From assembly GCA_903831335.1 (NCBI GenBank), contig CAIKXH010000041.1, positions 1-8,515 of the forward strand: 8,515 bases of DNA, in the 5' to 3' direction. The stretch comes from Candidatus Uhrbacteria bacterium (GTDB lineage: Bacteria; Patescibacteriota; Patescibacteriia; UBA9934; GWF2-40-263). The stretch's first letter is position 1, and every line of letters starts with the position of its first letter. The notes under the pieces are model-generated. The model was not told where the DNA came from, did not search any database, and was given only the letters and a program-made list of their open reading frames with translations. Positions 645 to 8,515 of the stretch are shown piece after piece. The position numbers and the translations under genes were made by a program.

Positions 645-1814
645 TCAGTTACGAGGTCGCACGAGCGCGAGAAGTGCAGCACCACCAACAATGAACGCAC
701 CAGAGAGAATCCAGATGAATCCAATAGTACTTTGAGTGTTTGGATCATTTCGAATGGTGAGCCAAATGAGCAACGGAGTAATCACAAGACCGATGCGACC
801 AAGAAAGGACTGCAAGGATCCAAATGTTGCACGGAACCCGCTTTCAACACGATGCTGAACAAACGAATCCACAAGCGGCGCAAACATACCACGACCAAAT
901 TCATGCAAAATGGCCGCAGACAATGAAACCCAAAGGCCTGTTGCAAAGCCTGCAAACATCAACCCCATCCCTGTAAACACGAGGGCTAAAAGAATCAGCT
1001 TAGATTCATCTCCCTGCGAAATCTTCAATCGGCGAACCCAAAATCCGGAGAGGGCGCATGCGAAATAGATGAGAGCCCAAACCCACGAAAGTCCGAGTGT
1101 TCCAACAAAAGGCTTGAAGTAAGGGGACCAGAAGTGATTGAATGCCACAATTCCACCACTCACGATCATCGCAAGAATCACCCACACGAGCGATCGGCTT
1201 TTTTTCAAAAGCGAAATACTTGCCCGCAAGGCCTCACGTTCACTCATTTTGTGAATAGGCTCTCCTTGGCCATTCATCCATTTGTACGTCACAAAAAACG
1301 TCATGGGTGATGTAATCATAAGCGGAATCCAAATCCATTGCGCATTCCAAAGAGCAATCAATGAACCAACTAGACCACCGATCACAATGGCAACACTTCG
1401 GACAATGGCGGATGTTGCAAACACGTGTCTGCGCTCATGATCCTTCCCTTCACGATGAAGGGCATCTGTAATCCACGCTTGCTCTGCTCCAGAAAAGAAT
1501 GCCATACCAACACCAATGAAGGACTCGGAGATCAGGGCGATTCCAAATCCTTGTGCGAAAAGATATCCAATCGCACCTATCATCAGAAACACACTCCCCA
1601 TTTTGAGAGACCACGCACGACTCTTCCCGTCTGCGAGCATGCCTGTTGGGAGCTCTGACAAAATTGCGACAAGCCAAAAAACAGCATTGAGCAAAGAAAT
1701 CTCTCCCAGCGACAATCCAAGAGACAACAGAAACGGAGCGTATGTTGTGAATGTGCACGCGAGCCCAAAAACGCCGATTGCTTGATACACATAGTATGTC
1801 CGAGCGGCGAGCAT
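645..1814 (-). CDS. MFS transporter
   Basis: A 389-residue polytopic membrane protein with about 12 hydrophobic segments. This is the usual size for the major facilitator superfamily, which moves small solutes across the cytoplasmic membrane, commonly by proton coupling. Between the second and third segments is the motif A region ELPTGMLADGKSR (about residues 54-66), which fits the family GxLaDrxGrr loop. EQAWITDAL follows segment 4, as in many drug-efflux-like MFS proteins. A basic loop (KKSRS) divides the two halves. I chose the ATG at 1814 because GGAGG (1820-1824) lies 5 nt upstream; an in-frame TTG at 1826 would place that ribosome site inside the gene. The substrate cannot be read from sequence. 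The gene stands alone, with its own promoter, a long structured leader and a terminator. Confidence 0.87.
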   Translation of the reverse strand: MLAARTYYVYQAIGVFGLACTFTTYAPFLLSLGLSLGEISLLNAVFWLVAILSELPTGMLADGKSRAWSLKMGSVFLMIGAIGYLFAQGFGIALISESFIGVGMAFFSGAEQAWITDALHREGKDHERRHVFATSAIVRSVAIVIGGLVGSLIALWNAQWIWIPLMITSPMTFFVTYKWMNGQGEPIHKMSEREALRASISLLKKSRSLVWVILAMIVSGGIVAFNHFWSPYFKPFVGTLGLSWVWALIYFACALSGFWVRRLKISQGDESKLILLALVFTGMGLMFAGFATGLWVSLSAAILHEFGRGMFAPLVDSFVQHRVESGFRATFGSLQSFLGRIGLVITPLLIWLTIRNDPNTQSTIGFIWILSGAFIVGGAALLALVRPRN

Positions 1815-2080
1815 TGTATCCTCCAAAGAACAGATCGAATCAACCGATTACGGAAAATCCGCACTCGATCACCCGACAACGACTGTGTCGACAAAGTCAG
1901 TTTGCACCAACGAACCGATCAATCGCGTAACAAAACAACCCGGTTTCCCGAGTTGATTTTGGATTGATTTGGTTTTTTGAACTTAAATCAATACATCACA
2001 ACCCGAGAAACAAAAAGCTTCGCCCATATTATCGGCGAACACTGTGTGTGTTGGGATGTATTGAGAAATTAAGTTCATAC
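1815..2080 (-). promoter_or_regulatory. Long structured leader of the MFS gene (possible cis-regulatory RNA)
   Basis: About 265 nt lie between the predicted transcription start near 2080 and the MFS ATG, with no convincing reading frame but several strong inverted repeats. (1) A closing helix joins 2069-2076 to 1979-1986 (8 bp) and 2055-2064 to 1988-1997 (10 bp). It encloses a 4-bp helix (2050-2053 with 1999-2002) and a 6-bp hairpin (2034-2039 with 2019-2024). (2) A hairpin with a GAAA loop joins 1948-1955 to 1936-1943, extended by 1957-1961 with 1931-1935 and by 1962-1968 with 1918-1924. (3) A 6-bp helix joins 1865-1870 to 1833-1838 and encloses a small CGGA/TCCG hairpin. The last helix ends 9 nt before the GGAGG ribosome site. 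I do not recognise a known riboswitch class. A separate small RNA is the main alternative. Confidence 0.5.
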
Positions 2081-2087
2081 TACTCAC

Positions 2088-2116
2088 AGTAAAGCAGAAA
2101 AAACACGGTTTGTCAA
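2088..2116 (-). promoter_or_regulatory. Promoter of the MFS transcript
   Basis: Perfect TTGACA (2111-2116), a 17-nt spacer and TTTACT (2088-2093) on the minus strand. It starts just beyond the proS terminator stem and points toward the MFS gene 270 nt away, so the structured leader would be transcribed. Confidence 0.7.
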
Positions 2117-2118
2117 GC

Positions 2119-2148
2119 AAAAACAGACCTTTCGGTCTGTTTTTCTTT
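2119..2148 (-). terminator. Rho-independent terminator of proS
   Basis: A perfect 11-bp stem (2119-2129 with 2134-2144). Read on the minus strand it has a GAAA tetraloop and its 3' arm ends in five T. It begins 4 nt after the proS stop codon. The A/T tracts at both ends would let it work in either direction. Confidence 0.9.
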
Positions 2149-3420
2149 TTACACTTTTACAAACTCACCTATCTCTTCCACAACATCAACGAATTTTACA
2201 AGTCTTCCCTCTGCTGAAATGCGCTCTTTCCATTCCACAGATTCTTCCTTCAATGATTTCTCCGAAATAAGAATACGCAGTGGAGCACCAATCAGATCTG
2301 CGTCCGCGAACTTTGCGCCTGGCGCAACATCTTCACGATCATCCCAAAGGACTTCTATGCCCTGAGCCTCGAGATCTCTCACGAGGTCATCGGCCGTACC
2401 CATAATATTTTCACGAACCGTTTCATCTTTGCTATTGAGCGTTATGAGATGAACCTGAAATGGTGCAACACTCTTTGGCCAGATCATTCCGCGATCATCG
2501 TGATTTGCTTCTACGATGGATCCGACGAGTCTCGACGTCCCAATTCCATAACATCCCATAAGAACACGTTTACGATCGCCGTTCTCGTCGACAAAGTTCA
2601 AATCAAACGCATCAGAATATTTTGTTCCAAGATCAAAGATGTTTCCAACCTCAATCCCCTTCACGGTCGATAGCACACCTCCACACTTTGGACACGCATC
2701 ACCTTCCTTCAACGTGGCGACTTCTGAATTTTGTCCGAATTCGCATTTACCACATGCGAGAATAACATCCTCACCCGCTGGTGTGAGTGCTTGAAATTCA
2801 TGAGAAGGATTCTTTGTAAAAATTCCACCACTTGCTTCTACGACTTTTACATTTAATCCGCAGCGGTTGTAAGCGCGAACGTAAGCTTCCAATGTTTTTT
2901 GATAAAACGCAGACAAATCTTCTTGGCTTGTATGAAAACTATACATGTCCTTCATGCGAAATTCACGACCGCGGAGCACGCCGGACTTTGCGCGAAGTTC
3001 ATCACGAAACTTTGTGTTGATTTGATATGTTGCGAATGGCAAATCTTTATAGGACTTCAAAAACTTGAGCGCAAGCGGAGTCACAATTTCTTCATGACTT
3101 GCCCCGAGTGCATACTCTTTATCTGTTTGCGAATGCAATTTAAAAAGAATATCAACTGTGTCCCAACGGTTTGTTGCCTCCCAAAATTCTTTTGGCTGCA
3201 AAGATGGCATCATGATTTCAAGAGCCCCGAGCGCATTCATTTCCTCACGGACGATTTGTTCTACTTTCCGAAGAACCGCGAGTCCGAATGGAAGCCAGGT
3301 ATAAACCCCGGCCATGGTTTGGTCCACAAATCCAGCCTGAACCAGAAACTTCGCGTTTGCGGAATCTGAATCAGATGGGGGTGTTTTAAAGGTTTTTGCA
3401 AAACAAGAAGAGTATTTCAT
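2149..3420 (-). CDS. proS: Prolyl-tRNA synthetase, short form without the editing insertion
   Basis: A class II aminoacyl-tRNA synthetase of 423 residues that charges tRNA-Pro with proline in the cytoplasm. Visible parts in order are: motif 1 around residues 37-72; TxE-like substrate loop SHEEIVTP (109-116); motif 2 at 138-162 with FRDE and REFRMKDMYSF; SHEFQ (206-210); motif 3 at 289-304 (GCYGIGTSR); and the C-terminal anticodon-binding domain from about 320. Typical bacterial ProRS is about 570 residues and carries the INS editing domain between motifs 2 and 3. Here only about 125 residues separate them, so INS is absent, as in alphaproteobacterial short forms. Two CxxC pairs (C223/C226 and C243/C246) lie in that segment and could bind zinc. 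The ATG at 3420 has no Shine-Dalgarno sequence; a -10-like box lies 9 nt upstream. Confidence 0.97.
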   Translation of the reverse strand: MKYSSCFAKTFKTPPSDSDSANAKFLVQAGFVDQTMAGVYTWLPFGLAVLRKVEQIVREEMNALGALEIMMPSLQPKEFWEATNRWDTVDILFKLHSQTDKEYALGASHEEIVTPLALKFLKSYKDLPFATYQINTKFRDELRAKSGVLRGREFRMKDMYSFHTSQEDLSAFYQKTLEAYVRAYNRCGLNVKVVEASGGIFTKNPSHEFQALTPAGEDVILACGKCEFGQNSEVATLKEGDACPKCGGVLSTVKGIEVGNIFDLGTKYSDAFDLNFVDENGDRKRVLMGCYGIGTSRLVGSIVEANHDDRGMIWPKSVAPFQVHLITLNSKDETVRENIMGTADDLVRDLEAQGIEVLWDDREDVAPGAKFADADLIGAPLRILISEKSLKEESVEWKERISAEGRLVKFVDVVEEIGEFVKV

Positions 3421-3429
3421 AACAAGAAG

Positions 3430-3458
3430 ATCATACCAAAAGCAAGAGAAGCCGGAAA
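3430..3458 (-). promoter_or_regulatory. Promoter of proS, giving a nearly leaderless mRNA
   Basis: TATGAT (3430-3435) with an extended TGG just upstream on the minus strand lies exactly 9 nt before the proS ATG. A weak -35 (TTTCCG, 3453-3458) sits at 17-nt spacing. A normal start about 7 nt after the -10 would leave only 2-3 nt of leader, which fits the missing ribosome-binding site. Read-through from the Nudix gene is also possible, since no terminator lies between them. Confidence 0.5.
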
Positions 3459-3469
3459 GAGTAAAAAGT

Positions 3470-3904
3470 TTATCCGATCATTCGCCCTTTCCAAATAGCG
3501 ATAAGCGCCTGACGAACTTTTGGGATCATATTTTCTGGCAGTTCATCAAGAGGCACCCAAAGCAATGCGTCACATTTATGCGGTTCAACAATCACAGGCT
3601 CACCTGACCAGTTTGTTGCTCGGAAATAGAAATCCACTCGGTTCCCTGTTTCATCATGAGGCAACTCATATGCCACATGAACAAACTCAAGGTCGCTTGC
3701 GAGAAGATCGACATTGATTTCCTCTTTTGCTTCACGGACCATCGTATCAACAGGAAGTTCGCCTTCATCCACATGTCCCGCTGGTAATCCATAACTTCCA
3801 TCCATGTATCCTGTTTGAAAACGGCGCATGAGAAGAATTTTTCCATCACGTTCGAGGAGAAGATAAGAAGCAGGAACAGCAACGTTGTTGTGTGACATAG
3901 GCAA
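3470..3904 (-). CDS. Nudix hydrolase
   Basis: A small cytoplasmic hydrolase of nucleoside diphosphates linked to another group. The Nudix box GX5EX7REUXEEXGU is clear: counting from the ATG at 3898, G41, E47, R55, E56, E59 and E60 are all present. The acidic residues bind the catalytic divalent metal. Two positions are relaxed: Ala for the first U and Asn for the last Gly. The stretch before it (YGLPAGHVDEGE) is typical, and the length (142-144 residues) is normal for a single-domain Nudix protein. The substrate cannot be told; mutagenic nucleotides, NDP-sugars or ADP-ribose derivatives are all possible. The start is uncertain. The ATG at 3898 is conventional, but a TTG at 3904 is exactly 9 nt after a TATAAT box. 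Neither has a Shine-Dalgarno sequence. The gene follows the M14 gene by 10-16 nt. Confidence 0.93.
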   Translation of the reverse strand: MPMSHNNVAVPASYLLLERDGKILLMRRFQTGYMDGSYGLPAGHVDEGELPVDTMVREAKEEINVDLLASDLEFVHVAYELPHDETGNRVDFYFRATNWSGEPVIVEPHKCDALLWVPLDELPENMIPKVRQALIAIWKGRMIG

Positions 3905-3913
3905 TACTTATGG

Positions 3914-3919
3914 ATTATA
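3914..3919 (-). promoter_or_regulatory. Consensus -10 box before the Nudix gene
   Basis: Perfect TATAAT on the minus strand, overlapping the stop codon of the upstream M14 gene, 9 nt before TTG (3904) and 15 nt before ATG (3898). No good -35 is present at 16-18 nt. Transcription from here would give a leader of only a few bases. Confidence 0.4.
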
Positions 3920-4793
3920 TGATTTTTCCTAAATACAGAACCGGCTGACCAATTTTCCAGTGCTCTGAAACTTTTGGAAAAATAATGACTCCATCATACT
4001 CTGCGATGAGCGATTCTTCTCCAACATATCCAAGCACATCCCCTTTTTTAAATTCTTCAAACGATCCTTTTCCTCTTCCGTCTGCGTATCGAAAACCAGC
4101 TTCTGTTAAATTAATACGTTCAGTCAGTTCGAAAACGTGTCGAGACCCCCTCATGCTCCCCCTTGGTAAGGGGGAGGTAACGAGCCCTTGATCGCACAAT
4201 ACATTCAAAACATTTTCATAAACAGAATCGACACGTGTCAGATCTCCCACAAAACCTGTTTCATAACAGATCCCGATTCCTCCTTGAACATCAATGAATT
4301 CATCGGTTGTTACAGGCTCGCCCGCGAGAATGTAACGAGGATCTGCGAGCACACGATCACAATCAAACCAACGATAAATCTGCTCGTGTTTTTCATCTGC
4401 GAGACAACAAAGGAATGGAACAGATGGTTTATTCGTCGCATGCAAATCAATGGAGACATCTGCATTTACAAGAATCTTTGCAATCTCTTTCGCGCGTTTT
4501 CGTTCATACAATTCATCCGATTGCAAAAGAACGTCTTTTTTGAAACAGCGATTCAGATCTGCATGATCTTCACTTCCGCGTGTATTCCGTTCAATAGCAC
4601 GCGGGTTTCCGAGGATTAAATAAAGCACCCCGCTTTCGATCATCTGCTGCCCCGATTCGATTGTGTGGAGCAATTTTTTTACAACCTCTATTCCCGTAAG
4701 TTCATTCCCGTGTGTTCCCCCAAACACAACAACTGTTGGTCCTATTTTTGAACCAGCACATTTCCAAATCCCTTCTCCAACAATTTCGATCAT
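3915..4793 (-). CDS. M14-family aspartoacylase / succinylglutamate desuccinylase-like deacylase
   Basis: A zinc-dependent amide hydrolase of 292 residues, related to AspA and AstE. The zinc-binding HxxE is seen in GGTHGNELTG (H28, E31), and the third ligand in DLHAT (about H117). The NPRA...RNTRG...DLNRCF segment (about 62-83) gives the substrate-binding Asn/Arg set of the family, and GICYETG (about 173-179) holds the likely catalytic Glu. From about residue 217 a beta-rich C-terminal domain (GDVLGYV, EYDGVIIFP, GQPVLYLG) resembles the capping domain of these enzymes. The family removes acyl groups from N-acyl amino acids; the exact substrate here is unknown. A GC-rich palindrome at 4156-4176 is translated in frame at the junction of the two domains. 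The ATG at 4793 has only a weak AGG upstream and a TATGAT box 9 nt before it. Confidence 0.9.
   Translation of the reverse strand: MIEIVGEGIWKCAGSKIGPTVVVFGGTHGNELTGIEVVKKLLHTIESGQQMIESGVLYLILGNPRAIERNTRGSEDHADLNRCFKKDVLLQSDELYERKRAKEIAKILVNADVSIDLHATNKPSVPFLCCLADEKHEQIYRWFDCDRVLADPRYILAGEPVTTDEFIDVQGGIGICYETGFVGDLTRVDSVYENVLNVLCDQGLVTSPLPRGSMRGSRHVFELTERINLTEAGFRYADGRGKGSFEEFKKGDVLGYVGEESLIAEYDGVIIFPKVSEHWKIGQPVLYLGKII
4146..4183. repeat. GC-rich palindromic element read in frame inside the M14 gene
   Basis: A perfect 9-bp inverted repeat, CTCCCCCTT (4156-4164) with AAGGGGGAG (4168-4176) and a 3-nt loop, is followed closely by a further C5 run (4146-4150). On the minus strand it encodes about SPLPRGSMRGS. 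Its composition is unlike the surrounding gene and it matches the look of small dispersed palindromic repeats. No second copy is in the window. Confidence 0.55.
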
Positions 4794-6131: not shown

Positions 6132-8003
6132 CTATTCCTCATTAAGCTCCGCCTGTTTATTCTTTTTTATAAAAGCCCTTTCTGCATCTCTATCTATTGT
6201 TCGTTGTTTTACGCCCGTGGATTTGTCTCCTGCTCCCACACCCTCAGCACGAAGACGAGCTCCGGATTGTCTACTACCAATCCATGTTGCATCACCACTT
6301 TCATCCAACTCAACCTTTTGTCTTCCTGTGTTATTTGGCAAAGAATCACCAACAACACCAACGACCTCACGCCCTTCATCAACCACACTTCTTTTCATTG
6401 CCTGAATTTCCCGAGATCCTTGCCCTTCCAACACAGGAAAAAATTCGGGTCGTGGTGGTGGAGGTGGTGGAGGTGGTGGAAGTGGAATTGGAGGCAACAC
6501 ATCACCATCGTCATCAGGATCAATATCTCCATCATCATCTGGATCAATAATTGGTGGAGTTTCAGGAACTGGTGGTGTGTCTATGATGTCTGGAACTCGA
6601 GGTCTGACTTCATTCGGATCCACGATCGGAACTTCTGGAACACGCGGAACAACCGTTGGTATTTCTGGAATACTCGGAACTCGAGGTTTTACAATCTGAG
6701 GAACTTCAGGGACGGGAATAACGGGTGTTGTGTCTGGCCCGTTTGGAACCCTAGGAATTGTAGGATCTGGTTCTGGACCAGGAAAAGAAGGAACCAGCTC
6801 AGGACCTGGTGTTAAATGAGTTGTAGAATCTGGACGAGATTTTGATTCTGGAACTGTAGGAAATATCTCAGTCGGACGAATAAACGACGGAGTTGGTTCT
6901 GGCACAGTAGGCGGTACTGGTTTTTTTGGTTCTGGTGGAAGATCTTTATCCTTACCATCTTCGTCTTCGTCTTCCTCTTTCTTAAACGATTCATCTTCTT
7001 CGCGAGCAATGTAAGGTTCTTTATATGCATTCGTATCATCATGAATTGCCCGCACTTCCCCAGGAATCCGATTATCCACATCAATAGGCACCGACTGGCC
7101 AACAAGAACATCGTGAGATTCCGGTGTTAACTTAATATCGTACGTAGGATTACGCTGATCACGCAACGCATGATCAAAGAATCGAGCAATGTATCCTGAT
7201 TGTTTTTTTTGCGCATCTTTTCCATTCATCCCATTGTATGTATGAATCGCATCTGTAAGTTGAATCGAACTCATTCCAAGCTCATGCTGCATCCATGACA
7301 TAAATTCTTGCTTGTCTTTGAACTCAGATCCGTCTGGCTTCTGTGGCATCTGTTCCCCACCAGAGACAGCATGAACATGAACATCACTTGGGTTCATGCC
7401 TAATTCTTCCGCAACCTGCTGAACAATGAGTGATGCTTCACCATCCACAATCTGAGCAGAATCATTTGCAAGATCAATATTCTTATCTGTATCACCTTCT
7501 GCGCTTGCAAATGTTGTGATGGTTACATCAACCCCTTTATAAACACCGCCATCTTGTTTGATTTTTTCAATAACTCCACCCGTAATTGAACCTGTGTTTA
7601 TTCGCCCTTCAGCGTCATAATGACGAGCATAAGAACGGGTGTCTTGTTCATGCAACTGAACATGGTCTCCTTGAATCTCTACAACATCAAAACGCTCCTC
7701 TCCTTGAGCTTTATTTTGTTCTCCTCCCCCAACCATGGATTCTTGTTTCGCGGATCCGTGCTGGGAGGCAGAAAATTCTTGTGCGTTGACGACACGTTCA
7801 CTAAAAACAAGAAGTGCGGCAAGAGCCACAAATTTTGTTGCCGTGCTTTCACGCAACTTCGTCAGAAAAGACGTTGTTCTACCTTGAGCTTCAATCGTCT
7901 TTGCATTTTGATCAATAGCCTTTTTTACTTGCTCTAATTCTGCTTTTGCAGATTCTCTTGATTCCCCACCAAACATTCCCATGAATCGTTCACCAAAACT
8001 CAT
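6132..8003 (-). CDS. Large proline-rich, probably exported protein of unknown function
   Basis: A 623-residue modular protein, not recognised as a whole. Residues 1-55 are charged and probably helical (AKAELEQVKKAIDQNAKTIE). Residues about 57-75 form a short hydrophobic helix (FVALAALLVF) ending in VNAQEF, which could be a late signal peptide cut after VNA or a membrane anchor. Residues about 140-218 hold a possible alpha/beta domain (VDVTITTFASAEGDTDKN, then a helix, then DVHVHAVSGG) that faintly recalls OmpA-type peptidoglycan-binding domains; this is a weak guess. An acidic/lysine stretch (334-354) leads to about 165 residues of PxxP-type linker, with two DPDDDGD units (about 487-501) and a run of nine prolines (about 509-517). 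The C-terminal 100 residues are charged. The ATG at 8003 lacks a clear ribosome site and lies 4 nt after the stop of the 50-residue gene, which suggests coupled translation. Confidence 0.88.
   Translation of the reverse strand: MSFGERFMGMFGGESRESAKAELEQVKKAIDQNAKTIEAQGRTTSFLTKLRESTATKFVALAALLVFSERVVNAQEFSASQHGSAKQESMVGGGEQNKAQGEERFDVVEIQGDHVQLHEQDTRSYARHYDAEGRINTGSITGGVIEKIKQDGGVYKGVDVTITTFASAEGDTDKNIDLANDSAQIVDGEASLIVQQVAEELGMNPSDVHVHAVSGGEQMPQKPDGSEFKDKQEFMSWMQHELGMSSIQLTDAIHTYNGMNGKDAQKKQSGYIARFFDHALRDQRNPTYDIKLTPESHDVLVGQSVPIDVDNRIPGEVRAIHDDTNAYKEPYIAREEDESFKKEEDEDEDGKDKDLPPEPKKPVPPTVPEPTPSFIRPTEIFPTVPESKSRPDSTTHLTPGPELVPSFPGPEPDPTIPRVPNGPDTTPVIPVPEVPQIVKPRVPSIPEIPTVVPRVPEVPIVDPNEVRPRVPDIIDTPPVPETPPIIDPDDDGDIDPDDDGDVLPPIPLPPPPPPPPPRPEFFPVLEGQGSREIQAMKRSVVDEGREVVGVVGDSLPNNTGRQKVELDESGDATWIGSRQSGARLRAEGVGAGDKSTGVKQRTIDRDAERAFIKKNKQAELNEE
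6452..6555 (-). repeat. Low-complexity tract: proline run and duplicated DPDDDGD
   Basis: A GGT/GGA triplet tract (about 6454-6480 on the plus strand) encodes nine consecutive prolines. Next to it (about 6500-6545) is a duplicated unit coding DPDDDGDI then DPDDDGDV. Both are prone to length change by slippage. The Asp units resemble the DxDxDG calcium-binding loop. Confidence 0.75.
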
Positions 8004-8251: not shown

Positions 8252-8313
8252 TGGTGCGGGCAGAGGGATTTGAACCCCCGACACCCAGTTCCGAAGACTG
8301 GTGCTCTATCCAG
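8252..8313 (-). tRNA. tRNA-Arg(TCG), D-loop to CCA only; 5' part displaced
   Basis: Read on the minus strand, the segment has D-loop GGATA (8307-8311) and D-stem GAGC (8303-8306), a 5-bp anticodon stem (8297-8301 with 8285-8289) with loop CTTCGGA and anticodon TCG (8292-8294), a five-base variable loop, a T-arm with loop TTCAAAT and stem GGGGG/CCCTC (one G-U), the 3' acceptor strand TGCCCGC, A73 and an encoded CCA (8252-8254). It would read the Arg codon CGA. No acceptor 5' strand resembling GCGGGCA, allowing G-U pairs, lies upstream up to the window edge. Where positions 1-15 should be there are two hairpins and the end of a GIY-YIG-like gene. It is either a tRNA gene split by an insertion, a 3' remnant at an integration boundary, or a tRNA whose 5' half lies elsewhere. 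Confidence 0.8.
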
Positions 8314-8393
8314 CCCCGACGAATCAACACTGTTATTCTTGTTGATTGTCGGGGCCCCGATCCTCGACACTTTTAACAGTCGAGGCGTCGGGG
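8314..8393 (-). repeat. Tandem pair of stem-loops inserted at the tRNA D-loop
   Basis: Two adjacent hairpins share the same outer stem. The first (8355-8393) has CCCCGA/TCGGGG (8388-8393 with 8355-8360) and an inner 7-bp stem CCTCGAC/GTCGAGG (8379-8385 with 8362-8368) around a 10-nt loop. The second (8314-8354) has CCCCGAC/GTCGGGG (8348-8354 with 8314-8320) and inner AATCAAC/GTTGATT (8341-8347 with 8322-8328) around a 12-nt loop. The outer arms can also pair end to end. No T-run follows, so they are not ordinary terminators. They are bounded by GCTCAG (8394-8399) and by the tRNA sequence CTGGATAGAGC. Confidence 0.8.
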
Positions 8394-8515
8394 CTGAGCC
8401 TGAATTCGAATCTCACCTTCATCAATAATCTTTTGCAGATAATCCTTTCGTTTGAGTTTCTTTAATCTTCGTTCAACAGATCTTGCTTCTTCAATATCGG
8501 AATATTCTTGTTTAA
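8373..8515 (-). CDS. GIY-YIG-like nuclease, C-terminal 46 residues only
   Basis: An open frame enters from the right edge and ends at TAA (8373-8375). The visible chain, KQEYSDIEEARSVERRLKK followed by LKRKDYLQKIIDEGEIRI, has the pattern of the last helices of small GIY-YIG proteins of the UvrC/UPF0213 type (EAxxxExxLKxLKRKxYLxKII). The GIY, YIG and catalytic residues would lie beyond the window. The last nine residues (QAQPRRLDC) are coded by GCTCAG and the first hairpin, so the stop codon sits in that hairpin's loop. The end of the protein is thus built from the junction sequence. The family includes homing endonucleases and many stand-alone proteins of unknown role. The family call is from pattern memory on a short fragment and remains moderate. 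Confidence 0.55.
   Translation of the reverse strand, partial: KQEYSDIEEARSVERRLKKLKRKDYLQKIIDEGEIRIQAQPRRLDC

What the first reader, a model, noticed from the sequence alone, without database searches (positions are those of the whole stretch)
8252..8399. tRNA-Arg(TCG) interrupted in the D-loop by two hairpins
The tRNA is perfect from G18-G19 to CCA but lacks its 5' acceptor strand. If the hairpin pair (8314-8393) is removed, GCTCAG joins CTGGATAGAGC, which is exactly a consensus bacterial D-arm, with GCTC able to pair with GAGC. Yet the nine bases before GCTCAG do not pair with the acceptor strand TGCCCGC; they code the end of a GIY-YIG-like protein. Candidate explanations are a mobile element in the tRNA gene with the true 5' half beyond the window, a tRNA fragment left at an integration boundary, or a split tRNA joined in trans. 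Insertion at D-loop positions 15/16 would be unusual: known bacterial tRNA introns sit mainly in or near the anticodon loop.
Basis: partly seen in the sequence, partly recalled or inferred. Interest (0 to 1): 0.8.

Follow-up and report, generated by a model that had tools for sequence, protein, structure and literature searches.

The report
Broken tRNA flanking a nuclease-tRNA element
In an uncultured, small-genomed bacterium, this tRNA-arginine copy is broken in its D-loop by a pair of DNA hairpins next to the end of a GIY-YIG nuclease gene, and the same layout at other tRNA genes of related bacteria, where an intact copy of the same tRNA lies alongside, suggests a mobile element that likely breaks tRNA genes while carrying or creating a working replacement.

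Summary
At 8252-8399 (minus strand) nt 10-15 and 16-77 of tRNA-Arg(TCG) are separated by an 80-nt hairpin pair, and nt 1-9 are replaced by the end of a GIY-YIG ORF. A same-genus genome (G002) has the intact gene. The window is a whole MAG contig (genus of a Ca. Uhrbacteria genome) that ends inside the GIY-YIG ORF. Homologous loci speak against an intron or split tRNA: the three closest GIY-YIG relatives (3 of 3) have an intact tRNA just upstream of the ORF and a hairpin-broken copy downstream. The same genome has two similar loci. Over all fetched loci, 106 of 132 GIY-YIG ORFs lie within 300 nt of a same-strand tRNA; 55 of 103 GIY-tRNA pairs have a fragment of that tRNA nearby (0 of 103 with shuffled flanks; 18 of 110 control tRNAs). 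The hairpin pair is a covarying double-hairpin element found in 36 of 379 phylum genomes, often at D-loop nt 15/16 but mostly elsewhere (56 of 94 sites). Best reading: the edge of a GIY-YIG/tRNA mobile unit that splits a tRNA gene and leaves an intact copy beside it. Anatomy is shown; cleavage, mobility and rescue are inferred.

The parts
8373..8513 (-). C-terminal end (46 residues, stop included) of a GIY-YIG nuclease ORF, cut by the contig end; runs through GCTCAG and stops inside hairpin 1
   Evidence: Translation; 70% identity to a G004 ORF in alignment A1, 76% over 37 residues; homologs match Pfam PF01541 above its cut-off, the fragment itself does not
8394..8399 (-). GCTCAG, tRNA nt 10-15 (5' side of the D-arm) of the broken copy
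   Evidence: Comparison with intact tRNA-Arg(TCG) of G002; sequence
8355..8393 (-). Hairpin 1 of the double-hairpin element
   Evidence: DNA fold; model R1 covers 8314-8393 (the window is one of the 16 sequences R1 was built from)
8314..8354 (-). Hairpin 2, which looks like an inverted copy of hairpin 1 (unpaired C on the 3' side)
   Evidence: Folds; alignment A2
8252..8313 (-). nt 16-77 of tRNA-Arg(TCG), with CCA
   Evidence: Identical to G002 nt 16-77; Rfam tRNA 28.8 bits
8216..8247 (-). Hairpin followed by a T run, terminator-like, just after the tRNA 3' end
   Evidence: Read directly from the sequence; no terminator scan was run

Best explanation
Window 8252-8513 holds a tRNA-Arg(TCG) copy broken between nt 15 and 16 by a pair of hairpins and joined to the end of a GIY-YIG nuclease gene, and it is likely the right-hand edge of a mobile unit (nuclease gene plus a complete copy of the same tRNA) that inserted into the tRNA gene and would carry its working replacement just beyond the contig end. 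Shown: the break, the hairpin pair, the GIY-YIG ORF end, and the same layout with an intact tRNA at homologous loci. Inferred: the nuclease cuts the tRNA gene at the D-loop (CAG^YTGG); repair from an occupied copy, or local recombination as reported for phage SegB, inserts or tandemly duplicates the block; the cut copy survives only as 5' and 3' fragments while the neighbouring intact copy keeps the cell alive; the hairpin pair, a REPIN-like double-hairpin element, marks the cut site and may block re-cutting or move through it. Open: what protects the intact copy from the nuclease, and which enzyme moves the hairpin element to sites outside tRNAs.
For: Closest GIY-YIG relatives G004, G011, G062 (3 of 3): intact tRNA, then GIY-YIG ORF, then hairpin pair and 3' tRNA fragment. 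Same genome: tRNA-Glu L117 and tRNA-Arg(GCG) L012 with [intact tRNA + GIY-YIG] between fragments of the same tRNA; in L117 a 42-bp repeat (hairpin pair with its tRNA flanks) stands on both sides. 106 of 132 unique GIY-YIG ORFs have a same-strand tRNA within 300 nt. 55 of 103 GIY-tRNA pairs have a fragment of the same tRNA within 500 nt, shuffled flanks 0 of 103. 65 distinct inserts in split tRNA copies (window included), 15 of them at nt 15; 176 raw split calls against 2 in shuffled flanks. Genomes with this GIY-YIG subfamily carry the double hairpin in 10 of 24 against 2.3 expected, p 1.3e-5. Precedent for GIY-YIG cutting in tRNA genes and duplicating a tRNA segment: SegB (PMC13096335, abstract and passages).
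Against: The intact tRNA-Arg(TCG) and the rest of the GIY-YIG gene are not in the bin, so the unit is not seen whole here. 48 of 103 GIY-tRNA pairs show no fragment at the threshold used, and 18 of 110 control tRNAs far from GIY-YIG do (9 of these 18 in loci fetched through the hairpin pattern). Some hairpin-broken tRNAs have no GIY-YIG in the fetched stretch, e.g. L014, L093, L157. The hairpin element also sits away from tRNAs at 56 of 94 phylum sites and in 26 of 36 genomes without this GIY-YIG subfamily at the cut-off used, so it can move without them. Of six GIY-YIG matches in this genome, two (C148, C137) show no tRNA in the stretch fetched and one (C117) was not looked at. Fragments are nearly identical to the intact copies, so a carried-in tRNA is not proved over local duplication. 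No cleavage or movement was observed.
Confidence: 0.6

Rival explanations
1. The double-hairpin element is an independent REPIN-like transposon whose target (roughly YWR^YWR) happens to match the tRNA D-loop; tRNA genes are duplicated first, or duplicates are selected afterwards, and the GIY-YIG gene is a separate passenger.
For: 56 of 94 phylum sites have no intact tRNA within 300 nt yet share the YWR flank preference: 27 and 34 of 56 against about 14% (motif chosen after seeing these sites). Hairpin-broken tRNAs without GIY-YIG exist. 26 of 36 genomes with the element lack this GIY-YIG subfamily at E 1e-15.
Against: GIY-YIG ORFs sit between broken copies of the same tRNA, and the element co-occurs with this GIY-YIG subfamily, p 1.3e-5 without correction for kinship. 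Intact copies lie directly beside the broken ones, not just anywhere in the genome. The Y1/RAYT transposase family is only weakly linked (19 of 36, p 0.07) and not found in the window's genome at E 1e-8.
Confidence: 0.25
2. Degraded leftover: ordinary tandem tRNA duplicates decaying by random deletions, with hairpins and GIY-YIG ORFs there by chance.
For: Many fragments are partial and vary in their ends. The broken copy here lacks nt 1-9.
Against: Exact shared break sites across species and tRNA types, covarying hairpins, and 0 of 103 with shuffled flanks argue against chance.
Confidence: 0.07
3. A tRNA intron or a split tRNA: the hairpin pair is spliced out, or nt 1-9 are supplied in trans.
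For: The insert sits in a loop, GCTC could pair with GAGC, and no other tRNA-Arg(TCG) is seen in the bin although the window's ORFs use CGA 22 and CGG 8 times.
Against: The copy lacks nt 1-9 in cis. No intron family of Rfam reaches its cut-off in eight homologous loci, and the evalue scan of the window lists none. No 5' half with up to 1 mismatch in the bin. Homologous loci carry intact copies.
Confidence: 0.05
4. Assembly chimera at the contig end.
For: The window is a whole contig that ends 114 nt past the GCTCAG side of the junction; repeated tRNA copies could mislead an assembler.
Against: The same junction type recurs in other genomes: G062, G011 and, with other tRNA borders, G004, and AQPRR tails occur in P0003, P0005, P0006, P0008.
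Confidence: 0.03

Closest known systems
SegB, free-standing GIY-YIG homing endonuclease of T-even phages (PMC13096335: outline, abstract, passages; PMC2988022: passages)
   Same: GIY-YIG nuclease gene beside tRNA genes; reported to cut inside tRNA genes and, with its active site intact, to be needed for tandem amplification of a tRNA-Tyr segment.
   Different: Phage, not bacterial chromosome; in the passages seen, no hairpin-broken second tRNA copy and no tRNA split around the nuclease gene. No cutting was shown here.
Fungal mitochondrial mORFs that carry a replacement gene end (PMC3630166, passages)
   Same: An endonuclease ORF inserted in an essential gene together with a duplicate gene end, the native end displaced downstream; one of the four cases (atp9) has a GIY-YIG ORF.
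   Different: Protein genes of mitochondria; the replacement there is a diverged C-terminal part, here a whole tRNA nearly identical to the fragments; no double hairpin at the border.
Double-hairpin elements / repetitive hairpin-forming elements of mitochondria (PMC2800124, passages) and bacterial REPINs (recalled)
   Same: Paired palindromes dispersed in a genome, sometimes inside genes.
   Different: Here the stems share a CCGAC/GTCGG core, the D-loop nt 15/16 is a frequent site, and a GIY-YIG/tRNA unit is often linked. A Y1/RAYT partner, as recalled for REPINs, is not clearly linked.
GIY-YIG ORFs in rRNA insertion sequences of CPR bacteria (PMC11270868, passages)
   Same: GIY-YIG ORFs in structural-RNA genes of the same radiation, in inserts not similar to group I or II introns.
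   Different: rRNA genes; the term tRNA has no occurrence in that paper's main text.
Group I introns in bacterial tRNA genes (PMC3984707, passages)
   Same: An insertion in a tRNA gene, sometimes with a homing endonuclease.
   Different: No intron family was matched, and the broken copies lack a tRNA half instead of being a whole gene with an intron.

Membership tests
Free-standing GIY-YIG homing endonuclease (Seg-like) | GIY-YIG catalytic domain | tested here: met
   Met for homologs: L035, L064, L117 and L012 above the PF01541 cut-off. The window's own 46-residue fragment lacks that part and has no Pfam match.
Free-standing GIY-YIG homing endonuclease (Seg-like) | Gene lies beside its target gene | tested here: met
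   Adjacency met: 106 of 132 ORFs within 300 nt of a same-strand tRNA. That the tRNA is the target is inferred.
Free-standing GIY-YIG homing endonuclease (Seg-like) | Site-specific cutting of alleles that lack the gene, and biased inheritance | not testable with these tools
   Needs purified protein and crosses or strain-level data.
mORF-type element with replacement gene end | Native gene end displaced, with an intact gene rebuilt or present alongside | tested here: met
   Met at G004, G011, G062, L117, L012. For the window itself the intact copy is not seen.
mORF-type element with replacement gene end | Replacement part is foreign (diverged from the native part) | tested here: inconclusive
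   Fragments in the loci above are 97-100% identical to the intact copy. In G004 the fragment keeps one base shared with G000, G001 and G003 that the intact copy has changed, one site only.
Double-hairpin element / REPIN | Two palindromes in inverted arrangement, dispersed | tested here: met
   Structure and covariation; found in 36 of 379 genomes.
Double-hairpin element / REPIN | Partner Y1 (RAYT) transposase in the genome (recalled for REPINs) | tested here: not met
   No PF01797 match in G000 at E 1e-8 (bin 81% complete); phylum link weak, 19 of 36 against 13.5 expected, p 0.07. So it is not filed as a REPIN.
Group I intron / tRNA intron | Recognised intron in an otherwise complete tRNA gene | tested here: not met
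   No intron family listed; nt 1-9 are absent from this copy.
Trans-split tRNA | The other half encoded elsewhere in the genome | tested here: not met
   No match with up to 1 mismatch to the 15-nt 5' half of G002 in the bin; the bin is 81% complete, so absence is weak.
tRNA-integrating island (tyrosine integrase) | Integrase gene in the inserted block | not tested
   The blocks printed are a few hundred bases and hold a GIY-YIG ORF; no integrase model was run, and for the window the block is cut by the contig end.

The most novel reading that the evidence does not exclude
A natural home-and-rescue gene drive in essential tRNA genes of Patescibacteria: a minimal GIY-YIG element cuts the conserved D-loop, carries a complete replacement tRNA, and stamps the cut copies with a double hairpin, so that it can spread through tRNA genes with a CAG^YTGG D-loop without killing its host.
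Probability: 0.35. Interest if true: 0.87.

Novelty: new variant of a known kind. Interest (0 to 1): 0.72.

Why it matters
If right, it shows how a selfish nuclease can colonise genes too essential to break, by supplying or provoking an intact copy in the same event. It would explain why many GIY-YIG ORFs of these bacteria sit beside tRNA genes and why tRNA fragments lie there too. It also warns annotators: hairpin-broken tRNA copies, and GIY-YIG tails that read into a tRNA, can be mistaken for tRNA introns, split tRNAs or odd protein ends. It gives a testable cut site (CAG^YTGG) and a defined double-hairpin family (model R1).

Tried and rejected
Rejected or disfavoured: tRNA intron (no intron family listed; nt 1-9 missing); trans-split tRNA (no 5' half in the bin); assembly chimera (junction type recurs). 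A Y1/RAYT-driven REPIN as the whole story was not supported.

Led nowhere: synteny through the 623-aa ORF next to the tRNA (no match in the other 41 family genomes); viral contigs (92 stretches matched a pattern, none encoded a relative by tblastn); closing the contig (no metagenome scan was allowed); the C148 and C137 GIY-YIG ORFs of the same genome, with no adjacent tRNA found.

Limits of the counts: the 132 ORFs come from all loci fetched by then, some fetched through a tRNA or a hairpin; the window's own ORF is among the 26 misses. The 103 pairs are from GIY-fetched loci and count three tRNAs twice (L111, L195, L202); one known broken copy is missed because ARAGORN calls it a tRNA and it was masked (L168 = L064). 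Of the 18 control positives 9 lie in loci fetched through the hairpin pattern, so that control is biased upwards. The 176 raw splits include repeated sub-calls of one fragment and rest on one shuffle per flank; the filter to 65 inserts was not applied to shuffles and keeps some inserts that are not hairpins (44 of 65 fold better than all 60 shuffles). One search tested 94 sites; the listing was truncated, 2 listed places were not fetched, and the sites of G000 and G013 were left out. One search tested 30 of the 33 distinct places. R1 was built from 16 sequences of fetched loci, the window included. The YWR motif was picked by eye from the sites. One search is not corrected for kinship. The 2.4% chance figure is my arithmetic from 30 tRNA matches in 852 kb.

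Full report
What is in the window. On the minus strand, 8399-8252 reads GCTCAG, an 80-nt insert, then nt 16-77 of a tRNA-Arg with anticodon TCG. ARAGORN reports no tRNA in the window and the Rfam tRNA model scores 28.8 bits against a cut-off of 29. The same-genus genome G002 has an uninterrupted tRNA-Arg(TCG) whose nt 16-77 are identical to window 8313-8252 and whose nt 10-15 are GCTCAG; same-genus G001 also has an intact tRNA-Arg(TCG) (L231). The break is therefore between nt 15 and 16, in the D-loop. The insert folds into two side-by-side hairpins (DNA z -9.0, 0 of 200 shuffles as good). Where nt 1-9 should be, a reading frame runs from 8513 to a stop at 8375-8373, through GCTCAG and into hairpin 1. 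Its 46 residues look like the C-terminal end of a GIY-YIG nuclease: 70% identical to a full-length ORF of G004 in alignment A1, 76% over 37 residues in the search. The fragment itself has no Pfam match.

Context limit. The window is the whole of contig C41 in an 81%-complete, 176-contig MAG. The contig ends inside the GIY-YIG ORF. The bin holds tRNA-Arg(GCG) and tRNA-Arg(TCT) but no other tRNA-Arg(TCG) among the 30 tRNA matches, and no match with up to one mismatch to the 15-nt 5' half of G002. The window's ORFs use CGA 22 and CGG 8 times in the eight ORFs counted, so a tRNA that reads CGA should exist.

Closest homologous loci. In G004, tRNA-Arg(GCG) is intact, followed 8 nt later by a GIY-YIG ORF, then two hairpins, then the 3' part of a second tRNA-Arg(GCG) copy. 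G062 has intact tRNA-Ala, GIY-YIG, then TAGCTCAG + hairpin pair + TTGGTAGAGC...CCA: the same D-loop site as the window with another tRNA. G011 has a 5' tRNA-Ala fragment + hairpin pair, an intact tRNA-Ala, GIY-YIG, and hairpin pair + 3' fragment. By homology the window is the right edge of such a unit, and an intact tRNA-Arg(TCG) is expected upstream of the GIY-YIG start, beyond 8515.

Same genome. L117: tRNA-Glu nt 1-35, hairpin pair, GIY-YIG, intact tRNA-Glu, terminator-like stem, the same hairpin pair, nt 36-75; AGGTTTT + hairpin pair + CATCC (42 bp) is the same at both ends. L012: fragments of tRNA-Arg(GCG), each with a hairpin, on both sides of [intact tRNA, GIY-YIG]. L014: tRNA-Thr(CGT) nt 1-15 + hairpin pair upstream of the intact gene, with no GIY-YIG in the stretch fetched. 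Of the six GIY-YIG matches in this genome three are at tRNAs or the broken tRNA (C41, C89, C95), two are not (C148, C137) and one (C117) was not looked at.

How general. 106 of 132 unique GIY-YIG ORFs in the fetched loci have a same-strand tRNA within 300 nt; chance is roughly 2.4% (arithmetic). In the 39 named loci of the subfamily, 37 have a tRNA within 800 nt. Of 103 GIY-tRNA pairs in GIY-fetched loci, 55 have a fragment of the same tRNA within 500 nt (42 upstream, 24 downstream), against 0 with shuffled flanks; of 110 tRNAs more than 1 kb from any GIY-YIG, 18 do, 9 of them in loci fetched through the hairpin pattern. A frequent order elsewhere in the phylum is 5' fragment, GIY-YIG ending close to the intact tRNA, intact tRNA, then sometimes a 3' fragment. 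Exact split pairs (both sides of a break present) number 65 distinct inserts, the window included; the commonest break is nt 15 (15 of 65), and 44 of 65 inserts fold better than all 60 shuffles.

The hairpin pair. Sixteen aligned pairs share CCGA..TCGG and CCGAC..GTCGG stem cores; the outer pairs change together (27 double-change cells against 5.9 in shuffles; 99.6% of cells paired). Hairpin 2 looks like an inverted copy of hairpin 1 (unpaired G after the first arm, unpaired C before the last). A model without tRNA flanks (R1) finds it in 7 of 59 relatives and 36 of 379 phylum genomes. Of 94 phylum sites tested, 38 lie within 300 nt of an intact tRNA and 18 have at least 9 nt of that tRNA at the junction. 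The other 56 lie elsewhere but share a YWR preference on each side (27 and 34 of 56 against about 14%; post hoc), which the D-loop CAG^YTGG also fits. Among 30 sites of the window's relatives, 18 are within 300 nt of an intact tRNA, and 21 left and 22 right flanks are YWR. Genomes with this GIY-YIG subfamily (24 of 379) carry the element in 10 cases against 2.3 expected, p 1.3e-5; the Y1 transposase family is weakly linked to the element (19 of 36 against 13.5, p 0.07) and to the GIY-YIG subfamily (14 of 24 against 9.0, p 0.05), and is not found in the window's genome at E 1e-8. Other hairpin types (CCCGCCCGA.., CCGGC.., CCTGCC.., GTCCGATG..) stand in broken copies of other tRNAs.

Mechanism, with status. 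Shown: the anatomy, its recurrence, its site preference, the hairpin structure. Inferred: the GIY-YIG protein cuts tRNA genes at the D-loop; repair inserts or duplicates a block; the intact neighbour rescues. That the intact copy lies beside the broken one in the loci shown argues that duplication is coupled to insertion, since selection alone could keep the rescue copy anywhere. Tandem arrays such as the three 85-bp units before tRNA-Val in L093 fit repeated local duplication. Precedent: in phage T6, the nuclease activity of SegB, a GIY-YIG enzyme that cuts within tRNA genes, is needed for tandem amplification of a segment with tRNA-Tyr (PMC13096335, abstract and passages). Fungal mORFs displace a native gene end and supply a replacement (PMC3630166, passages). 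Not explained: protection of the intact copy, and movement of the hairpin element outside tRNAs.

Against this reading: the intact copy is unseen for this locus; GIY-YIG is missing from some hairpin-broken tRNAs; the element is dispersed, mostly away from tRNAs in the phylum sample; 48 of 103 GIY-tRNA pairs show no fragment at the threshold used; copies are too alike to prove a carried-in tRNA. The main rival is an independently transposing double hairpin with GIY-YIG as a passenger.

Literature. Searches (CC-licensed PMC only; the lists shown were capped) listed no paper that I recognised as describing GIY-YIG/tRNA nested units or D-loop double hairpins in Patescibacteria. The CPR rRNA-insert paper has no occurrence of the term tRNA in its main text and says that its GIY-YIG ORFs lie in inserts similar to neither intron group (PMC11270868, passages). 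A meeting report mentions archaeal split tRNAs and CPR rRNA introns (PMC10714607, passages).

Verdict. I class it as a new variant of a known kind (selfish endonuclease with gene replacement), with the home-and-rescue reading open.

Noticed in passing
L117 (G000 C95), L065, L067, L069: tRNA-Glu(TTC) fragments carry another hairpin pair type (CCGGC/GCCGG), in the anticodon loop (L117, L065) or near the D-arm (L067, L069).
   Followed up: partly
L068 (G064 C33): A hairpin (GTCCGATGGACATCGGAC) stands in place of the tRNA-Ala anticodon arm in fragments on both sides of the GIY-YIG/tRNA unit, with a third, altered copy downstream.
   Followed up: no
L093 (G011 C5): Three tandem 85-bp units, each tRNA-Val nt 1-16 plus a hairpin pair, stand before the intact tRNA-Val(TAC), with no GIY-YIG in the stretch.
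   Followed up: partly
G000 contigs C41, C148, C137: Three of the six GIY-YIG matches of this genome lie within 300 nt of a contig end, which may reflect assembly breaks at repeats.
   Followed up: no
L296, L257 (phylum genomes): Some double-hairpin elements away from tRNAs sit next to similar flanking sequence (agcggagag..., aaagtcgcagaagaag...) that looks coding and repetitive.
   Followed up: no
window 645-4793, minus strand: Neighbouring genes: MFS transporter, prolyl-type tRNA synthetase (class II core and anticodon-binding domains; 'prolyl' is my reading), NUDIX hydrolase, succinylglutamate desuccinylase/aspartoacylase family.
   Followed up: partly
window 6132-8003, minus strand: A 623-aa ORF with a proline-rich stretch, no Pfam match and no match in the other 41 family genomes.
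   Followed up: partly
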